DNA of 64,000 nt from assembly GCA_902728285.1 (NCBI GenBank), contig CACVBU010001358.1, forward strand, positions 1 through 64,000, given 5' to 3'. Both the position numbers and the translations under genes were made by a program. The notes under the pieces were generated by a model. That model was given only the letters and a program-made list of their open reading frames with translations. It ran no database searches and was not told the origin of the DNA. This document shows positions 3,961 through 64,000 of the stretch, one piece after another. Within the stretch, counting starts at the first letter, position 1, and each line of letters opens with the position of its first letter. Source of the DNA: Clytia hemisphaerica (lineage: Eukaryota > Cnidaria > Hydrozoa > Leptothecata > Clytiidae).

Positions 3961-4196
3961 TTTCACTGGTTTTCGCCAATGAACATACGAACGATATTAA
4001 ATAAATGGATTGGAAAGAAACCTCACACAGTTAATCAAAGATACTTATTATACAAACTTTTGTCTGGAACTCATCCACTGAGTAAGATTGGACTTTCTGT
4101 TATGTTGTTTTGGCGACTATGATTTTTTCATCAAATTAAGTTCAAAAAATGGATCAGAGTACCTTCGTTTTTTTCTTGCAAACTAGCACGTTTTTT

Positions 4197-4556: not shown

Positions 4557-5075
4557 GAATGTTGCTTGGGTTTGTGTAGAAAAGTGAGGCAAGGCGATAA
4601 ATGTTGCTTGGATTTGTGTTGAAAAGTGAGGCAAGGTGATAAAAGTTGCTTGGATTTGTGTTGAAAAGTGAGGCAAGGTGATAAAAGTTGCTTGGATTTG
4701 TGTTGAAAAGTGAGGCAAGGCGATAAATGTTGCTTGGATTTGTGTATGCGAAAGTGAGGCAAGGCGATAAATGTTGCATGGATTTGTGTTGAAAAGTGAG
4801 GTAAGGCGATAAATGTTGCTTGGGTTTGTGTTTGAAAGTGAGGCAAGGCGATAAATGTTGCTTGGATTTGTGTATGCGAAAGTGAGGCAAGGCGATAAAT
4901 GTTGCATGGATTTGTGTTGAAAAGTGAGGCAAGGCGATAAATGTTGCTTGGGTTTGTGTTTGAAAGTGAGGCAAGGCGATAAATGTTGCTTGGATTTGTG
5001 TTGGAAAGTGAGGCAAGGAGATAAATGTTGCTTGGATTTGTGATGGAAAGTGAGGCAAGGTGATAGCGTCGCGGT
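4557..5075. repeat. 42-bp minisatellite, about 12 units
   Basis: Unit of about 42 bases (TTGCTTGGATTTGTGTTGAA then AAGTGAGGCAAGGCGATAAATG) repeated about 12 times, with point variants and a few units carrying TGTATGCGAAAG. Because 42 is a multiple of 3 and the unit lacks stops on the minus strand, long open frames arise in all three minus frames (14-residue periods such as NPSNIYRLASLSNT). The frames look like by-products of the period. No splice-linked gene structure is visible around the array. Confidence 0.9.
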
Positions 5076-5424
5076 AAGAGTGTTAAGAAATGTTGTGAGT
5101 TGTGGTGCGAACGTCTTGTGTGCTGGGAAGGATAAAGAGAGCTTGAGTGTTGCAGTGTCTGTACGTATGCTGTGATTAAGTTGTTTTCAAAACCAGGTAA
5201 CATTCAACTTTAAGCAAAGCAAATTAATGTTTTACTCTTTTTCACAATCTAATGATGCTCTTATCTACCACATCCTAATTTTGAATGAAAAACCCTTTTA
5301 TTTTCTTCTTTTATTCTCCTAGAAGTCGTTGGAATTGAGGTTCAATCTCAACTTTTTCCTTATTAGAGGTTGGGGTTTAGTGTATTCTTCTTGAGAAAAA
5401 TGTTTCAGTCAAATTCAACAAGTA

Positions 5425-6100
5425 GTAGGGGGAATTTTGTTCGATTTTTTGGAATCGCTTGACTGTTTTGTTAGAAGCACTTGTTATACATTTTTGGAAA
5501 GCTAAGGGGTAGGGGAATCGAAATTACTATGTTTCCAATTTTTTTTCGGACACTTTGGTGTGATTTTCGGACAAATATGACGGTCTCAGGCAAAAATCAT
5601 AGGGTTAAAAATTAATGAAAATTTTAGCTCGAGAAAACGGAGACCTGTTGTATATTTTTGGAAATCTCTCAAAAAATTAAGATTAGAGATATATTACAAG
5701 TATAGGTGATTTCTGTACCTAACTCGAGATATTAACCCTTGAAAACCGTGTTTTTCAGCCAGAAACAGCTATTTTGTCCAGTTTTTGCGCTTTTTGAAGC
5801 TCAATATCTCGAGTTAGGTACTGAAATCACCTATACTTGCAATATATCTCTAATCCTAATTTTTTGAGAGCTTTCCAAAAATATACAACAGGTCTCCGTT
5901 TTCTCGAGCTAAAATTTCCATTAATTTTAACCTTATGATTTTTGCCTGAGACCGTCATATTTGTCCGAAAATCACACCAAAGTGTCCGAAAAAAAATTGG
6001 AAACATAGTAATTTCGATTCCCCTACCCCTTAGCTTTCCAAAAATGTATAACAAGTGCTTCTAACAAAACAGTCGAGCGATTTTACAAAATGCCCTCTAC
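5425..6100. mobile_element. Palindromic fold-back element, copy 1
   Basis: About 676 bp. Nearly the whole left half is the reverse complement of the right half: GTAGGGGGAATTTT at the left, AAAATGCCCTCTAC at the right, with matching inner blocks (aagcacttgttatacatttt, ggggtaggggaatcga, CTCGAGATATT). A TA lies on each side, as expected of a TA duplication. Only a central segment near 5745-5800 (gtgtttttcagccagaaac) is unpaired. A second copy is at 13339-14026. No transposase is encoded, so this is a non-autonomous element. Transcribed, it would form a hairpin of more than 300 bp. Confidence 0.85.
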
Positions 6101-6642
6101 TAAAGGCTTAGGACACCGTTGCGTATGTTATACTAAGTGTTTTTCAAACATTAAATTTTTAAATCCTTTTTTTGTATTTATAGCTCAAATCTTAATTTTT
6201 GTGTATATATTGTTTTTCTCTGAATTAATAAATTCTAGGTGCAATACAAATTGTAAATTTGTCCCTTCCTTACCGAAATCAATCTTTTTACAAATAGGAT
6301 GTTTTATGGAAATAAATTAACAGACTCTAATAGCCAAAAAACTCTTGCCAACCAACTGTTACTCCTTCTCTCGAACATGAATAGTGTTGGTAGTGGCAAA
6401 TTTGCAAATAATCTGCCCGATGGACTATTCTAAACAGCGTTGTCGTTAAGGTTTTCAATAATTGAACCGATTTCTTTCACGAACCCGACTGTCTTATTTG
6501 ACCCTTACGTGACTTAAAGACTCTGAGTGGTCATAGTGAATTGTTATATTTTATTTTCTCGTTTTAGATGTATACAAGAAAAGCTTATTAACAAGCAAAC
6601 TAAATATTACAATTTTCTTGTTGCATCAATTGGTCGATCACC

Positions 6643-12475: not shown

Positions 12476-13338
12476 GGAACCGTGCACACTCAACTATAAA
12501 CGAGGGGCGGCCTTGACTGGAGAAAAAATAAATAAATCAACATAAAAATGCCAAAAATGAACAAAAGTGATGAAAGCCGCAGTGAACATTTTATAAAGCG
12601 GCCGCCTCGGATACTTTCTCAGGGAATAAAGAACAGGTTTAAGACATTAAGAAATAATCTATCACATCTCTGTCTGCTTTGGACAAATTCAACTTTGTGT
12701 TAAACTTTTTTTTGTCTGAAGTTCAACCAAAATGAGCTTTTCAACCTCTTTGGCTTTAACACCGAATTAGGTTTTTTGATTGTACTTCCTTCTAATCGTT
12801 TTAAGCTTATTGGGCTGACCTTCCAGCGCAGCTGGTTTATTTCCGCTTGGTCTACAGTATCACATTTACATTTGTCCTTGCAAAGAAGGAATATTTCATA
12901 TTTTCCCTTCCGCTTTCGTTATTGTTAATTTCGCTTCGCATAGCGAAAGTATTACAATAGGCTTTCGCGGTGGCGGCGGTGCGGAAAAAAAATTAGAAAA
13001 CGAAAGTAGTTGAAACTTCTAGAACATTCTCGAAGTCTAAAATATGGGCTCACTCGCTAAGATAAAATTTAATGATTCCAGTCCGCAAGTGCTAGGTAGG
13101 TGGAACCAAGCATTCGTAAACAATGGCGAATTTGATCATGCTGTCACTTGCTCTGGATTTTAGTCTTTTTATCATGTTTTTGGTGTTTTTAGAGTACTTA
13201 AAGAGGTTTATATATCTTTTAGCATAGTATTTTATGTTTGTGTAGTTAGTAAATATGCACCAATAAAATGATAGGAATCTTACAATTAAAGATTTGCTCT
13301 TGAACATCACTACACACAACAACAATACAGACAACATA
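12476..13338. other. No gene seen; small GCGAAAG inverted repeat
   Basis: Contains TTTCGCTTCGCATAGCGAAAG near 12920-12950 with GGCTTTCGCGG and a GGCGGCGG run after it, possibly an element end. A minus-strand open frame at 13092-13379 runs into the next fold-back element and shows no domain. Confidence 0.35.
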
Positions 13339-14026
13339 GTAGGGGGAAATTTGTAAAATCGCTCGAATTTTTTAGTCAAAGCACTTGTTATACATTTTTG
13401 GAAAGCTAAGGGGTAGGGGAATCAAAATAACTTGGGTGCCAATTTTTTTTCGGACACTTTGGTGTGATTTTCGGACAAATACGACGGTCTCAGGCAAAAA
13501 TCATAGGGTGAAAAATTAATGAAAATTTTAGCTTGAGAAAATGGAGACCTGTTTTATATTTTTGAAAAGCTCTCAAAAAATTAAGATTAGTGATATATTG
13601 CGAGTATAGGTGATTTCAGTACCTAACTCGAGATATTGAGCTTCCGAAAGCGCAAAAACTGGACAAAACAGCTGTTTCTGGCTGAAAAACACTGAAAAAC
13701 ACTGTTTTCAAGGATTAATATCTCGAGTTAGGTAAAGAAATCACCTATACTCGCAATATATCATTGAACTTAATTTTTTGAGAGATTTCCAAAAATATAC
13801 AACAGGTCTCCATTTTCTCAAGCTAAAATTTTCATTAATTTTTCACCTAATGATTTTTGCCTGAGACCGTCGTATTTGTCCGAAAATCACACCCAAGTGT
13901 CCGAAAAAAAAATTGGCACCCAAGTTATATTGATTCCCCTACCCCTTAGCTTTCCAAAAATGTATAACAAGTGCTTTGACTAAAAAATTCGAGCGACCTC
14001 AAAAAAACGAACAAATTTCCCCCTAC
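13339..14026. mobile_element. Palindromic fold-back element, copy 2
   Basis: 688 bp, ends GTAGGGGGAAATTT and AAATTTCCCCCTAC with TA on both sides. Both arms match the copy at 5425-6100. The unpaired centre (near 13640-13710) is the same segment in reverse orientation, so the two copies lie in opposite orientation. Confidence 0.85.
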
Positions 14027-14329
14027 TAACACAACCAGACAACAGACAGGTATGATCTTCATTTTTACAGCTAGAATTATTTGTTGATATTTGATTAGGT
14101 TGTGTTGTAAGAAAGATTATCGTTTACTTAGTATTTCACAGAAGAATTCACAGTAGGGGGTGTCAATCAATCTATGACTAATTTATAACCAACCGATTGA
14201 TTGGATGTCGATTGATTTTGATAATCGAGACTATTCTAACTGATAATATATTAGTTTTTTAATCGATTGGCTGTCAATTGTGATAGTATTGTGATCAATC
14301 GAACATCTTTATAATACCAGGCTGGGCTT

Positions 14330-20861: not shown

Positions 20862-20867
20862 TGTTAC

Positions 20868-21070
20868 AAGAACATAAAAAGTTTTGAGTTTTAAGTCTTA
20901 ATATGGTTCTTAAAATATCCTTAATATTACCATTTTGTGATTATTTTTGTGCAATTTAGGGTTTAGACTCTAAATGCCTTAAAATGTTCTTAGCTTATTC
21001 TTAATTTTTTGGCCATCAAAGTTTCAAAGTTTTTAATAAAGAGTTTTTCTCGACATTAGACCAACTTACG
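20868..21070. mobile_element. Partial MITE, CACGT-T(n)-ATAAGAACA family
   Basis: Carries the family's internal words (ttcttaa, 'ggccatcaaagtttc', 'aaaatgttctta'). It lies just upstream of the MFS gene and next to the lone GACATTAGACCAAC end at 21052-21070. Confidence 0.45.
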
Positions 21071-21150
21071 AAAAGCTGAGAAGTTAAAAACACCACCTAA
21101 TCTGAGTATTGTTTAACATTTTTTTTCTTTTAGAAATCTAAATCTGAACC

Positions 21151-23535
21151 ATGTTGAAATCCTCAGAAGAAAGCTTACTATGTGACTGGTACAAAAAACG
21201 TAAATATAATTTAATCATCTACACGTTTTTTTTTTTATTAGAACACCTAAAATTTGGCTGAGCCTGGATGTGCTTATTTTTTTAGCAATTTTCAGCCTAA
21301 AATGTTCTTAAATGCGTTCTTAATTTTTTAGACTACTCTAAATCGATAATATGATACAAAATAAAGAGCACTTTAATTTGGCAAAATTTGGACAATATTT
21401 GACCCTCGAATTTGAAGATCCACCCCTAAATTCGGTTAAAACTGCTTAAAAAGAGGAAAAAATTGTAGTTTCTTGTCATTTTTTTCCAAACTGAGGCTGG
21501 GCATGTTCTTAAGATGTTCTTAATTTTTCGACGAATTTCAGCCTATATGTTCTTATAAACTAGGTTCTAATAAAAAAAAAACGTGTATACCATCGCTAAA
21601 GCTCTGCACGCATTCGAAAATTCGGCCATCCAGATTTCTGCTTTGTATTATTTTCAAAATATTATTCACGTCGAGAATGCGAAATTGTATTATTCTTTGA
21701 CGATGGGTGGTTTGTTTTTATCGGCAACTCTATCCTCGATTGTGATTGGTCGATATATGGATCATTATCGTAATCTTCGGAGCACGGCTCTGGCGATGGC
21801 TTGGTTTAACATTGCTGGTAATTTAATATATTTGATACCGGTTTTAAACTGGTTCCCAATCTTTGGTCGATTTTTATGTGGAATTGCAGATGGAATCAAA
21901 CCAGCTTATCAAGGTTAGTCACAAACCAAACTCGTACTCAGGCCTTTTGTTTATAAACCCCGAAGTGCTAGATGTCGTACTTTAAGCTCTTCCAAGTAAA
22001 AAAAAAGTGAATATCGCAAAGAATATTGCTGCTATTGTTTTTGAAAGCCCAAGGAGCATCTAACTGGTCAAGCACTGAACTTCTATTGTAATGTCACGTG
22101 ACCTAGGTATAGAATTTCCTACCTAACCTTGGCATATATAACATTTTTTGAAAATTAGCCCCCTCGGACATTGTGACTTTTGACCTCCTGGGCAGCAGGT
22201 CCCCGGACAAGCATGACACTAAAAATTACCCTCAAACAGAGCAAGTTTACCCCCCGGACAAGGCAAATTTTGTTGATTTTTCACAATGCGCCCGAACACT
22301 ATATCCACCAACCCCCCCCCATGTACAGACATTTTTTGGAAGAGCCCAAAAGAAAGATGTTTAAAAACTTGATTTAATTTACAATCATTCTATTTTTAGG
22401 AGAATTAACTCGAACATACCCTTCTAAAGAACTTTCTGTACTGGTCACAATGATACAAACATTAACCATCATTTGCCATGCCTTAGCCCCTGTGTCACCT
22501 ATCATATTCAAATGGGTCAACTTCAAATTATTTGGGCATGAAATCAATCAATACAACTGTGTTGCTCTGTTTCTGGCTGGGTGCACACTAACATACGGGG
22601 TCGCCGCTTACTTCTTGTTAACTGATTTGACTAAAAACCCTGGTTATCACGTTTACTTAAAAGTCAATCAAAAACTCAGTGAAAGATCAAGAAAATCAGT
22701 ATCTATATGTCGATTTAGCGGTGACAATAAGAAAAACACTGATATATCAAACGAAGAAGTTTCAAAAGAAAGTCTATATTCGTCTAACAAACCAGAGGCA
22801 ATAGCAAAGAAGGATCAATCAGAAAATTCCAAAGAAAGTTTATATCCGTTTACAGAATCGGAGATAATTGGAAAGAATGACCAAGCAGAACTTCTACCAG
22901 TAGCTAATAAACCCGATATTGTTGATCTCAATCCGAAACCGTTAACACTAACAGAGCTATTGAAAAATGTGGACGTTCTAGTTCCACTGTATGTAATATT
23001 TTTAATCAATATTGTTTATGCTCAATCTGAGTTAATGATTAACATTGTAGCTGTTAATCTATTCCATTGGAGCATCCAACATCTGAGTATTTTGACCATA
23101 ACAGTAGTTATCATTGCAGTATTAACATTGAAATATATTGAAAGATTCAACACGTATATTGATGCGTATTACATACTTGTGTTATGTACGACTGGAAACG
23201 CACTTAATCTGACAATTATTCTTCCTTTAGCTAAGGAGTGTATTGGAAATGACGCTTTGAGGAACGTTGCAATATTTATGACACAATGTTTTAATATCCT
23301 GTTTAGCTATCCTGCCACTGCTTTTACAACTGTCATTCTCTCTGTAGTGGTAGACCATCATTCAAGATGTTCTGTGTTAGGACTGCGACAAATGGCAATG
23401 AAATTGGCGTGTTGTTTTGGATATTTTTCTGCAGCTTTCTTGTTCATTGTTATCGATAAAGCGTATATCATTTTGACATTATTTTGCTTGTCAACCTCAC
23501 TGGTTTTGTTATTAGGAGTCGATCTTATATTTTAA
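21151..23535 (+). CDS. MFS transporter, MFSD8-like, first coding exon split by a transposon
   Basis: Coding pieces: 21151-21221, 21588-21913 and 22400-23535 (TAA). A polypyrimidine tract and AG just before 21132 suggest a 5'UTR intron. The protein would be about 511 residues with about 12 membrane segments, typical for the major facilitator superfamily. TM1 is NLIIY+TIAKALHAFENS, followed by LTMGGLFLSATLSSIVIG and then GRYMDHYR in the place of MFS motif A. TM4-like GRFLCGIADGI precedes the 21913|22400 intron (phase 1). A long polar loop (about residues 205-300) rich in Ser/Lys/Glu separates the two halves, and six more segments follow. The spacing of the start (KRKYNLIIYT) matches lysosomal MFSD8/CLN7-type proteins; the substrate is unknown. 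The break: 364 bp of transposon between codons for Y and T brings an in-frame TAA, so this copy cannot give the full protein unless the element is removed from the RNA. It may be a null allele, a pseudogene or an insertion polymorphism. Confidence 0.75.
21222..21585. mobile_element. MITE inside the MFS coding exon, TA duplication
   Basis: 364 bp with inverted ends CACG, a run of 10-11 T, ATTAGAAC (left) and the complement at the right (GTTCTAAT, A run, CGTG). TA is duplicated at 21220-21221 and 21586-21587. Excising the element plus one TA rejoins the transporter frame exactly. Same family as 4197-4400, 20868-21070, 29640-29840, 47868-48066 and 53270-53506. No coding capacity. No GT-AG pair at its edges would splice it out cleanly. 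Confidence 0.88.
21914..22399 (+). other. Intron of the MFS gene
   Basis: GTTAGT donor and TATTTTTAG acceptor. It contains two short overlapping plus-strand open frames (22173-22377) without recognisable content. Confidence 0.6.
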
Positions 23536-24152: not shown

Positions 24153-24621
24153 CAGGGTGTCCCTAATAAAAGTATCGAGTTTGAACATGCGATTGAGTAG
24201 AAAGTTTTAAGTGTGTATTCACAAAATTGTATTTTAAGCTCTCCCTCTTTTTTCTTTGTCATTACGTAACAATAAAAACATACTCTGCCTGTTTACAAAT
24301 GCAACGAAATTACGATCATGAGAAAAACGCAACAATTAAAACATGTTTGTAAAGAATCGTATGTAAAACTATGAAAATAATAAAAATGGAATGTATGGAA
24401 CAATAAAAAAGTAAAACTAGGCAGCAATTTTGATTTTTAAAGACGTACATTTATGCAACAGGGGAATAGTAAAAAGGGCTATTGATTAATTTATACGTTG
24501 TAACTACCTTTTGTAATGAGCCTATGTGATGGAGAACGTTCTTATATTTTAGCGATAACACACACAAACTTTTTTATTCAATCGCATGTTCAAACTCGAT
24601 ACTTTTATTAGGGACACCCTG
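24153..24621. mobile_element. MITE with CAGGGTGTCCCTAATAAAAG ends
   Basis: 469 bp with an inverted repeat of about 44 bp: CAGGGTGTCCCTAATAAAAG, then TATCGAGTTTGAACATGCGA, complement at the right. TA on both sides (24151-24152 and 24622-24623). CAGGGTGTCCC ends with TA duplications are typical of mariner-derived MITEs. No transposase. Confidence 0.88.

Positions 24622-33528: not shown

Positions 33529-64000
<30,472 letters not shown>

What the first reader, a model, noticed from the sequence alone, without database searches (positions are those of the whole stretch)
21151..21913. A 364-bp MITE sits inside the first coding exon of an MFS transporter, with the frame restored exactly on excision
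Seen: TA duplicated at 21220-21221 and 21586-21587, inverted ends CACG-T(n)-ATTAGAAC, in-frame TAA in the element, and upstream (KYNLIIY) and downstream (TIAKALHAFENS) halves of a membrane segment that join without gap or shift. Known: MFSD8-type proteins have their first membrane segment at this place. Inference: a recent disruptive insertion, so a null allele, an insertion polymorphism or a very young pseudogene, with the rest of the gene still intact. A less likely reading is that the element is being handled as a new intron; its edges lack a clean GT-AG pair.
Basis: partly seen in the sequence, partly recalled or inferred. Interest (0 to 1): 0.8.

Follow-up and report, generated by a model that had tools for sequence, protein, structure and literature searches.

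The report
Mobile element splitting a transporter gene
A short mobile DNA element appears to have jumped into the first coding stretch of a membrane-transporter gene, probably of an animal, so that the gene cannot be read straight through; this is a clean but ordinary kind of insertion mutation, and whether the organism copes by cutting it out of the RNA is unknown.

Summary
A 364-bp element (21222-21585) has near-perfect terminal inverted repeats (23 and 22 bp, differing by one T in the T-run) between TA duplications. Keeping one TA joins the flanks into an open frame; keeping none or both does not. In place it gives 36 residues, then a stop, ten in-frame stops in all. The two downstream exons are open for 486 codons and match Pfam MFS_1 at 1.9e-14. 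Exact frame restoration is what a TA-duplicating insertion at a coding TA predicts. Best reading: a young, MITE-like insertion making a null or strongly reduced allele. None of the three registers of exact removal is GT-AG. The only single GT-AG introns that reopen the frame and spare nearly all of exon 2 run from 21182 or 21200 to 21601 and cut into putative helix 1. Some frame-restoring pair is common: 94 of 102 simulated sites had one. No genome of the organism is held, and I had no reads, RNA or orthologues, so polymorphism and null status are untested. 'MFSD8-type' is not shown. Ordinary, with close precedents.

The parts
21222..21585 (.). inserted 364-bp MITE-like element, no protein-coding capacity seen
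   Evidence: ends and flanks; stops in all three forward frames; single-strand DNA fold of 21220-21587 z -3.63, 0 of 100 shuffles as stable
21222..21244 (+). left terminal inverted repeat, 23 bp (T11)
   Evidence: motif scan, self-alignment; 0 of 2000 randomisations
21564..21585 (-). right terminal inverted repeat, 22 bp (A10)
   Evidence: motif scan, self-alignment; 0 of 2000 randomisations
21220..21221 (.). target site duplication TA, left copy
   Evidence: frame test with 0, 1 or 2 copies kept
21586..21587 (.). target site duplication TA, right copy
   Evidence: frame test
21119..21133 (+). putative 3' splice acceptor before the first coding exon
   Evidence: matrix from 7 local acceptors: score 5.8, 96.6th percentile of window AG sites
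21151..21221 (+). upstream part of the first coding exon (23 codons plus 2 bases), ending in the start of putative membrane helix 1
   Evidence: translation; such an open stretch occurs at 6.2% of TA sites, so likely rather than proven
21588..21913 (+). downstream part of the first coding exon
   Evidence: read as 21589-21915, Pfam MFS_1 E 5.1e-05, 22.8 bits, below the 33.4 cut-off when alone; donor CAAG|GTTAGT after 21913
22400..23535 (+). last coding exon with stop codon
   Evidence: no Pfam match alone; acceptor TTTTTAG ends 22399; joined with the previous exon MFS_1 E 1.9e-14, profile 16-346 of 347
21200..21601 (+). candidate cryptic GT-AG intron that would remove the element in frame together with 13 residues (replaced by one proline)
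   Evidence: donor score 4.8 (92.4th percentile), acceptor 1.6 (80.4th percentile); computed only

Best explanation
A non-autonomous DNA transposon (MITE-like, TA target, 22-23 bp inverted ends) moved into a TA dinucleotide in the first coding exon of an MFS transporter gene, at the start of what is probably membrane helix 1. Shown: the anatomy of the insertion, the frame and the stops, the open downstream exons. Inferred: the upstream 23 codons belong to the gene; the insertion is recent; it was mobilised by a Tc1/mariner-type transposase; and on this haplotype the gene yields a 36-residue peptide or transcripts prone to nonsense-mediated decay, i.e. a null or strongly reduced allele, with at most a little in-frame protein from cryptic splicing.
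For: TA duplication and near-perfect TIRs (0 of 2000 randomisations). Frame is recovered with exactly one TA kept, not with none or both. Ten in-frame stops, the first at codon 37. Exons 2+3 match MFS_1 at E 1.9e-14 over profile positions 16-346 of 347; the exon-2-only match pairs residue 11 with profile position 12, which puts the junction at the very start of the MFS profile. No stop or frame break in 1527 coding sites: had the gene been free of constraint since insertion, P(no stop) falls to 0.05 at about 0.037 substitutions per site counting stops alone, and at 0.013-0.023 with assumed indel rates. Relatives of the element in the window, 54545-54481 (78% over 65 bp, E 3.7e-11) and 53889-53814 (75% over 76 bp, E 2.7e-9; low-complexity filter off), are degraded, so this copy looks younger.
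Against: No closely similar full-length copy lies in the 64 kb, so multi-copy status is not shown. Similarity to five short repeats is weak: local scores 56-86 against shuffle maxima 55-70, one of the five only tying its best shuffle. No genome of the organism is held and one viral-contig scan with the last exon found no relative, so an empty site in another individual or species was not seen. The 23 upstream codons have a position-wise GC pattern (0.22/0.26/0.39) unlike the later exons (0.41/0.34/0.32), though 23 codons are few, and 6.2% of TA sites have a comparable open stretch. Putative helix 1 is only modestly hydrophobic (peak 0.84). The age bound presumes loss of constraint; a gene rescued by splicing would also stay intact.
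Confidence: 0.78

Rival explanations
1. The element is tolerated because the spliceosome removes it with flanking cryptic sites (donor 21200, acceptor 21601), giving an in-frame protein with 13 residues replaced by one proline: a nascent, imperfect intron, comparable to Tc1 in C. elegans exons.
For: Donor AAC|GTAAAT scores 4.8, just under the six local donors (leave-one-out 5.3-9.7); acceptor 21601 scores 1.6, above three of the seven local acceptors in leave-one-out (0.5-1.0); the pair keeps the frame. Precedent: with Tc1 in exon 1 of rsd-3(pk2013), somatic function was kept and 3 of 5 cDNA clones kept the frame with 48 bp inserted; the authors leave open splicing or imprecise excision from the array (PMC4910058, passages seen). 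Introners can take both splice sites from the insertion site (PMC9860276, passages seen).
Against: Acceptor 21601 lies in a stretch without a pyrimidine tract and at the 80.4th percentile only; stronger acceptors 21241, 21331 and 21285 (7.9, 7.5, 6.0) lie inside the element ahead of further in-frame stops. 94 of 102 in-silico placements of the same element at other TA sites of exons 2+3 have some frame-restoring GT-AG pair within 60 nt, so its presence is no sign of adaptation. Putative helix 1 would lose its first part.
Confidence: 0.1
2. The element lies in an ordinary intron: the true first exon is further upstream, the intron ends at 21601, and the 23 upstream codons are chance.
For: 570 of 9188 TA sites (6.2%) have such an open stretch; an AG with a passable score exists at 21601; the GC pattern of the 23 codons differs from the later exons.
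Against: The exon-2-only MFS_1 match extrapolates to profile position 2 at the first residue after the junction, so TIAKA would be expected to be coding; dropping it leaves a less hydrophobic helix 1 (window means 0.84 and 0.68 with it, 0.18-0.53 in the windows starting at residues 31-40 after it); an acceptor-like site ends 17 bases before the ATG; one-TA joining gives a continuous frame.
Confidence: 0.08
3. The gene was already a dying or redundant copy before the insertion.
For: None direct; null insertions survive more easily in dispensable genes (general knowledge).
Against: No stop or frame break in 1527 coding sites. A tblastn of exons 2+3 hit only those exons in the window, so no local duplicate is seen; elsewhere is unknown.
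Confidence: 0.04

Closest known systems
MITEs with TA target duplication (Tc1/mariner type)
   Same: TA duplication, short size, terminal inverted repeats, no coding capacity
   Different: no autonomous partner could be looked for; a T10-11 run directly behind CACG is not a terminus I recall for a named family; no close sister copy in the 64 kb
Tc1 insertion in exon 1 of C. elegans rsd-3 (pk2013; PMC4910058, passages seen)
   Same: a TA-inserting transposon (TA target of Tc1 recalled) in the first coding exon near the start codon
   Different: there cDNAs show that some messages keep the frame; here no RNA was available, and the element is 364 bp rather than 1.6 kb
Introners (PMC9860276, passages seen)
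   Same: DNA-transposon-like element with TIRs and a target duplication inside a coding exon
   Different: no canonical splice borders for clean removal; no family of related introns was shown

Membership tests
MITE | short (a few hundred bp) and without coding capacity | tested here: met
   364 bp; stops in all three forward frames
MITE | terminal inverted repeats | tested here: met
   23/22 bp, no substitution, one gap; 0 of 2000 randomisations
MITE | target site duplication | tested here: met
   TA on both sides; of 0, 1 or 2 TA kept only 1 restores the frame
MITE | many similar copies in the genome | tested here: inconclusive
   only degraded or distant relatives in 64 kb; no genome held
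Tc1/mariner superfamily | TA target duplication | tested here: met
Tc1/mariner superfamily | ends shared with an autonomous element that encodes the transposase | not testable with these tools
   genome not held
Introner | splice borders that allow clean, length-preserving removal from mRNA | tested here: not met
   the three exact registers run TA..TG, AC..GT, CA..TA. Not a rule-out of splicing: two single GT-AG introns spare nearly all of exon 2, a GC-AG pair 21257-21601 and an AT-AC pair 21217-21582 also leave the frame open
Introner | family of near-identical introns in other genes | not tested
   no genome or transcriptome
Major Facilitator Superfamily (PF07690 MFS_1) | profile score above Pfam gathering cut-off | tested here: met
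   53.8 bits against 33.4, E 1.9e-14, exons 2+3 joined; exon 2 alone is below it and exon 3 alone matches nothing
MFSD8/CLN7 subfamily | closest relative is MFSD8 | tested here: inconclusive
   NCBIfam none, PDB no MFS chain; no animal protein collection among the tools

The most novel reading that the evidence does not exclude
The element is a newborn intron caught at its origin: the transcript is rescued by cryptic splicing (21200-21601), or by an unusual AT-AC removal of 21217-21582 that would leave a full-length protein with one I-to-V change (ATCTAC does not fit the U12 donor consensus as I recall it).
Probability: 0.06. Interest if true: 0.6.

Novelty: new member of a known kind. Interest (0 to 1): 0.22.

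Why it matters
It is a clean example of a young transposon insertion in a coding exon with target duplication and full-length ends. If the allele segregates, it is a natural knockout of a transporter. If transcripts are rescued by splicing and the organism is an animal, it would show an early step of intron birth in a group where introners are rare (PMC9860276, passage seen: among animals and land plants, introners in only two groups, both animals). Otherwise it is an ordinary insertion allele.

Tried and rejected
Rejected: exact splicing of the element with GT-AG borders (three registers). Rejected: no target duplication, or a target duplication that leaves both TA in the ancestral site (frame breaks). 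Not used as evidence: the mere existence of frame-restoring splice pairs, since 94 of 102 in-silico sites (TA sites at least 90 nt from the ends of exons 2+3) have one within 60 nt.

In one search, single introns that leave the frame open to 21913 number 10 (GT-AG), 8 (GC-AG) and 34 (AT-AC; the 9 with an acceptor before 21660 were printed). Of the 10 GT-AG ones, two (donors 21182 and 21200, acceptor 21601) spare nearly all of exon 2; the other eight end at 21782 or later. 45 two-intron GT-AG combinations with the last acceptor up to 21700 exist; 25 were printed, of which 10 lose the ATG. The best-scoring upstream donor, 21189 (5.5), pairs in frame as a single intron only with 21782.

Led nowhere: own-genome search (none held); PDB searches (no MFS chain up to E 10); one viral-contig scan (7 pattern matches, none confirmed; the other 7 scans and the one scan of prokaryote genomes were not used, as I expected no animal sequence there); NCBIfam. 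My TA-flanked inverted-repeat scan did not list this element (its complexity filter drops the T-run ends); the motif scan in the same call did. The similarity to the five short repeats was tested with 60 mononucleotide shuffles per pair, so it is only suggestive.

Literature: seven searches. Seen as passages: PMC9169325, PMC9860276, PMC4910058. PMC2447444 and PMC4910058 gave the reference-list title of Rushforth & Anderson 1996, which I did not read. The organism is not identified, so nothing was searched by species; I make no claim that this element is or is not in print.

Full report
Observation. The window holds a 364-bp element at 21222-21585 flanked by TA (21220-21221, 21586-21587). Its ends are inverted repeats of 23 and 22 bp that differ only by one T in a T-run (11 against 10); none of 2000 first-order Markov randomisations of the element had ends pairing as well (best 8, observed 17). 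The strand 21220-21587 folds better than all of 100 shuffles (z -3.63). The coordinates in the finding are right.

Gene. The part of the exon after the element (read as 21589-21915) matches Pfam MFS_1 at E 5.1e-05 but below the curated cut-off (22.8 against 33.4 bits), with residue 11 at profile position 12; the last exon alone matches nothing. Spliced together across an ordinary GT-AG intron (21914-22399) the two are open for 486 codons and match MFS_1 at E 1.9e-14, 53.8 bits, profile 16-346 of 347. The upstream 71 bases give MLKSSEESLLCDWYKKRKYNLII plus two bases that complete Y after joining: a basic cluster and then a hydrophobic start of putative helix 1, behind an acceptor-like site ending at 21133. 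Against this: a stretch as open in the right phase occurs at 570 of 9188 TA sites, the GC pattern of the 23 codons differs from the later exons, and putative helix 1 is only modestly hydrophobic (peak 0.84). This part rests on the combination of evidence.

Frame. With one TA kept, the flanks read continuously; with none or both kept they hit stops. That is what a TA-duplicating insertion at a coding TA must give; it supports the target duplication and the absence of later frame breaks, and nothing more exotic. In place, the element gives 36 residues and then TGA at 21259-21261, the first of ten in-frame stops. After the last of these stops the first methionine in frame is that of YYSLTMGG within exon 2, so re-initiation there would lose helix 1.

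Age. The TIR arms show no substitution and the coding parts no stop or frame break over 1527 sites. If the gene lost constraint at insertion, absence of stop mutations has probability 0.05 at about 0.037 substitutions per site, or at 0.013-0.023 if 0.05-0.15 indels per substitution are assumed. Related sequence in the window is degraded: a minus-strand relative whose two ends lie at 54545-54481 and 53889-53814 with other DNA between, and five shorter repeats near 4187, 20866, 29635, 47865 and 53480. The five resemble each other clearly (local scores 93-158, shuffle maxima 54-73) but the element only weakly (56-86, shuffle maxima 55-70, one tie; 60 mononucleotide shuffles per pair).

Could it be spliced? 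I built small position matrices from six donors and seven acceptors that I inferred by eye from TMEM117-like exons and this gene. The three registers of exact removal run TA..TG, AC..GT and CA..TA: none is GT-AG. Of the ten single GT-AG introns that leave the frame open to the end of exon 2, two keep nearly all of exon 2: donors 21182 (score 2.5) and 21200 (4.8) with acceptor 21601 (1.6). The local acceptors themselves score 0.5-9.6 in leave-one-out, three of seven below 1.6, so the matrix does not exclude 21601. Both introns drop the first part of putative helix 1. Better-scoring acceptors (21241, 7.9; 21331, 7.5; 21285, 6.0) lie inside the element. A GC-AG pair 21257-21601 and an AT-AC pair 21217-21582 also leave the frame open; the latter would leave a full-length protein with one changed residue but lacks the U12 consensus as I recall it. 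As a control, the same element placed in silico at 102 other TA sites of exons 2+3 had a frame-restoring GT-AG pair within 60 nt at 94, so finding one here means little.

Literature. Passages of PMC4910058 report Tc1 in the first exon of C. elegans rsd-3 right after the start codon; the insertion allele rescued somatic function, and 3 of 5 cDNA clones kept the frame with 48 bp inserted while 2 of 5 had a frameshift; the authors leave open splicing or imprecise excision from the array. Passages of PMC9860276 describe introners, many with TIRs or TSDs, some taking both splice sites from the insertion site, and only two animal groups with them. Passages of PMC9169325 treat intron gain in nematodes. 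These make rescue by splicing a real possibility and the insertion itself ordinary.

Verdict. An ordinary, young, MITE-like insertion in a coding exon of an MFS transporter of an unidentified organism, probably an animal (TMEM117 and USP7 domains nearby; their animal range is recalled); most likely a null or strongly reduced allele on this haplotype. What would change that needs RNA, reads or orthologues, none of which I had.

Noticed in passing
24153-24621: TA-flanked element with inverted ends of about 51 bp starting CAGGGTGTCCC, just downstream of the transporter gene; it looks like a mariner-type MITE (recalled resemblance).
   Followed up: no
5416-6102 and 13332-14028: Two long palindromic repeats of about 690 bp, 89% alike, each pairing with itself over most of its length.
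   Followed up: no
57916-58573: Inverted arms of 90 bp, 98% identical, about 480 bp apart; TA flanks the stretch 57920-58569.
   Followed up: no
53814-54545 (minus): Degraded relative of the finding's element whose two ends are separated by DNA with a plus-strand ORF (53952-54389) that recalls the tail of an invertebrate retroelement; Pfam gave no convincing match (best E 0.13).
   Followed up: partly
42691-53040 (minus): Apparently two tandem TMEM117-like genes: three ORFs match PF15113, further exons by eye; a short repeat related to the one at 20911 lies near 47923-48039, probably in an intron.
   Followed up: partly
4558-5065: Twelve copies of a 42-bp minisatellite with long open frames on the minus strand in three frames.
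   Followed up: no
22761-22890: Tandem duplication of about 66 bp within the transporter's last exon, the frame staying open.
   Followed up: no
20866-21050: Degraded short repeat, weakly related to the element, directly upstream of the gene's putative first splice acceptor.
   Followed up: partly
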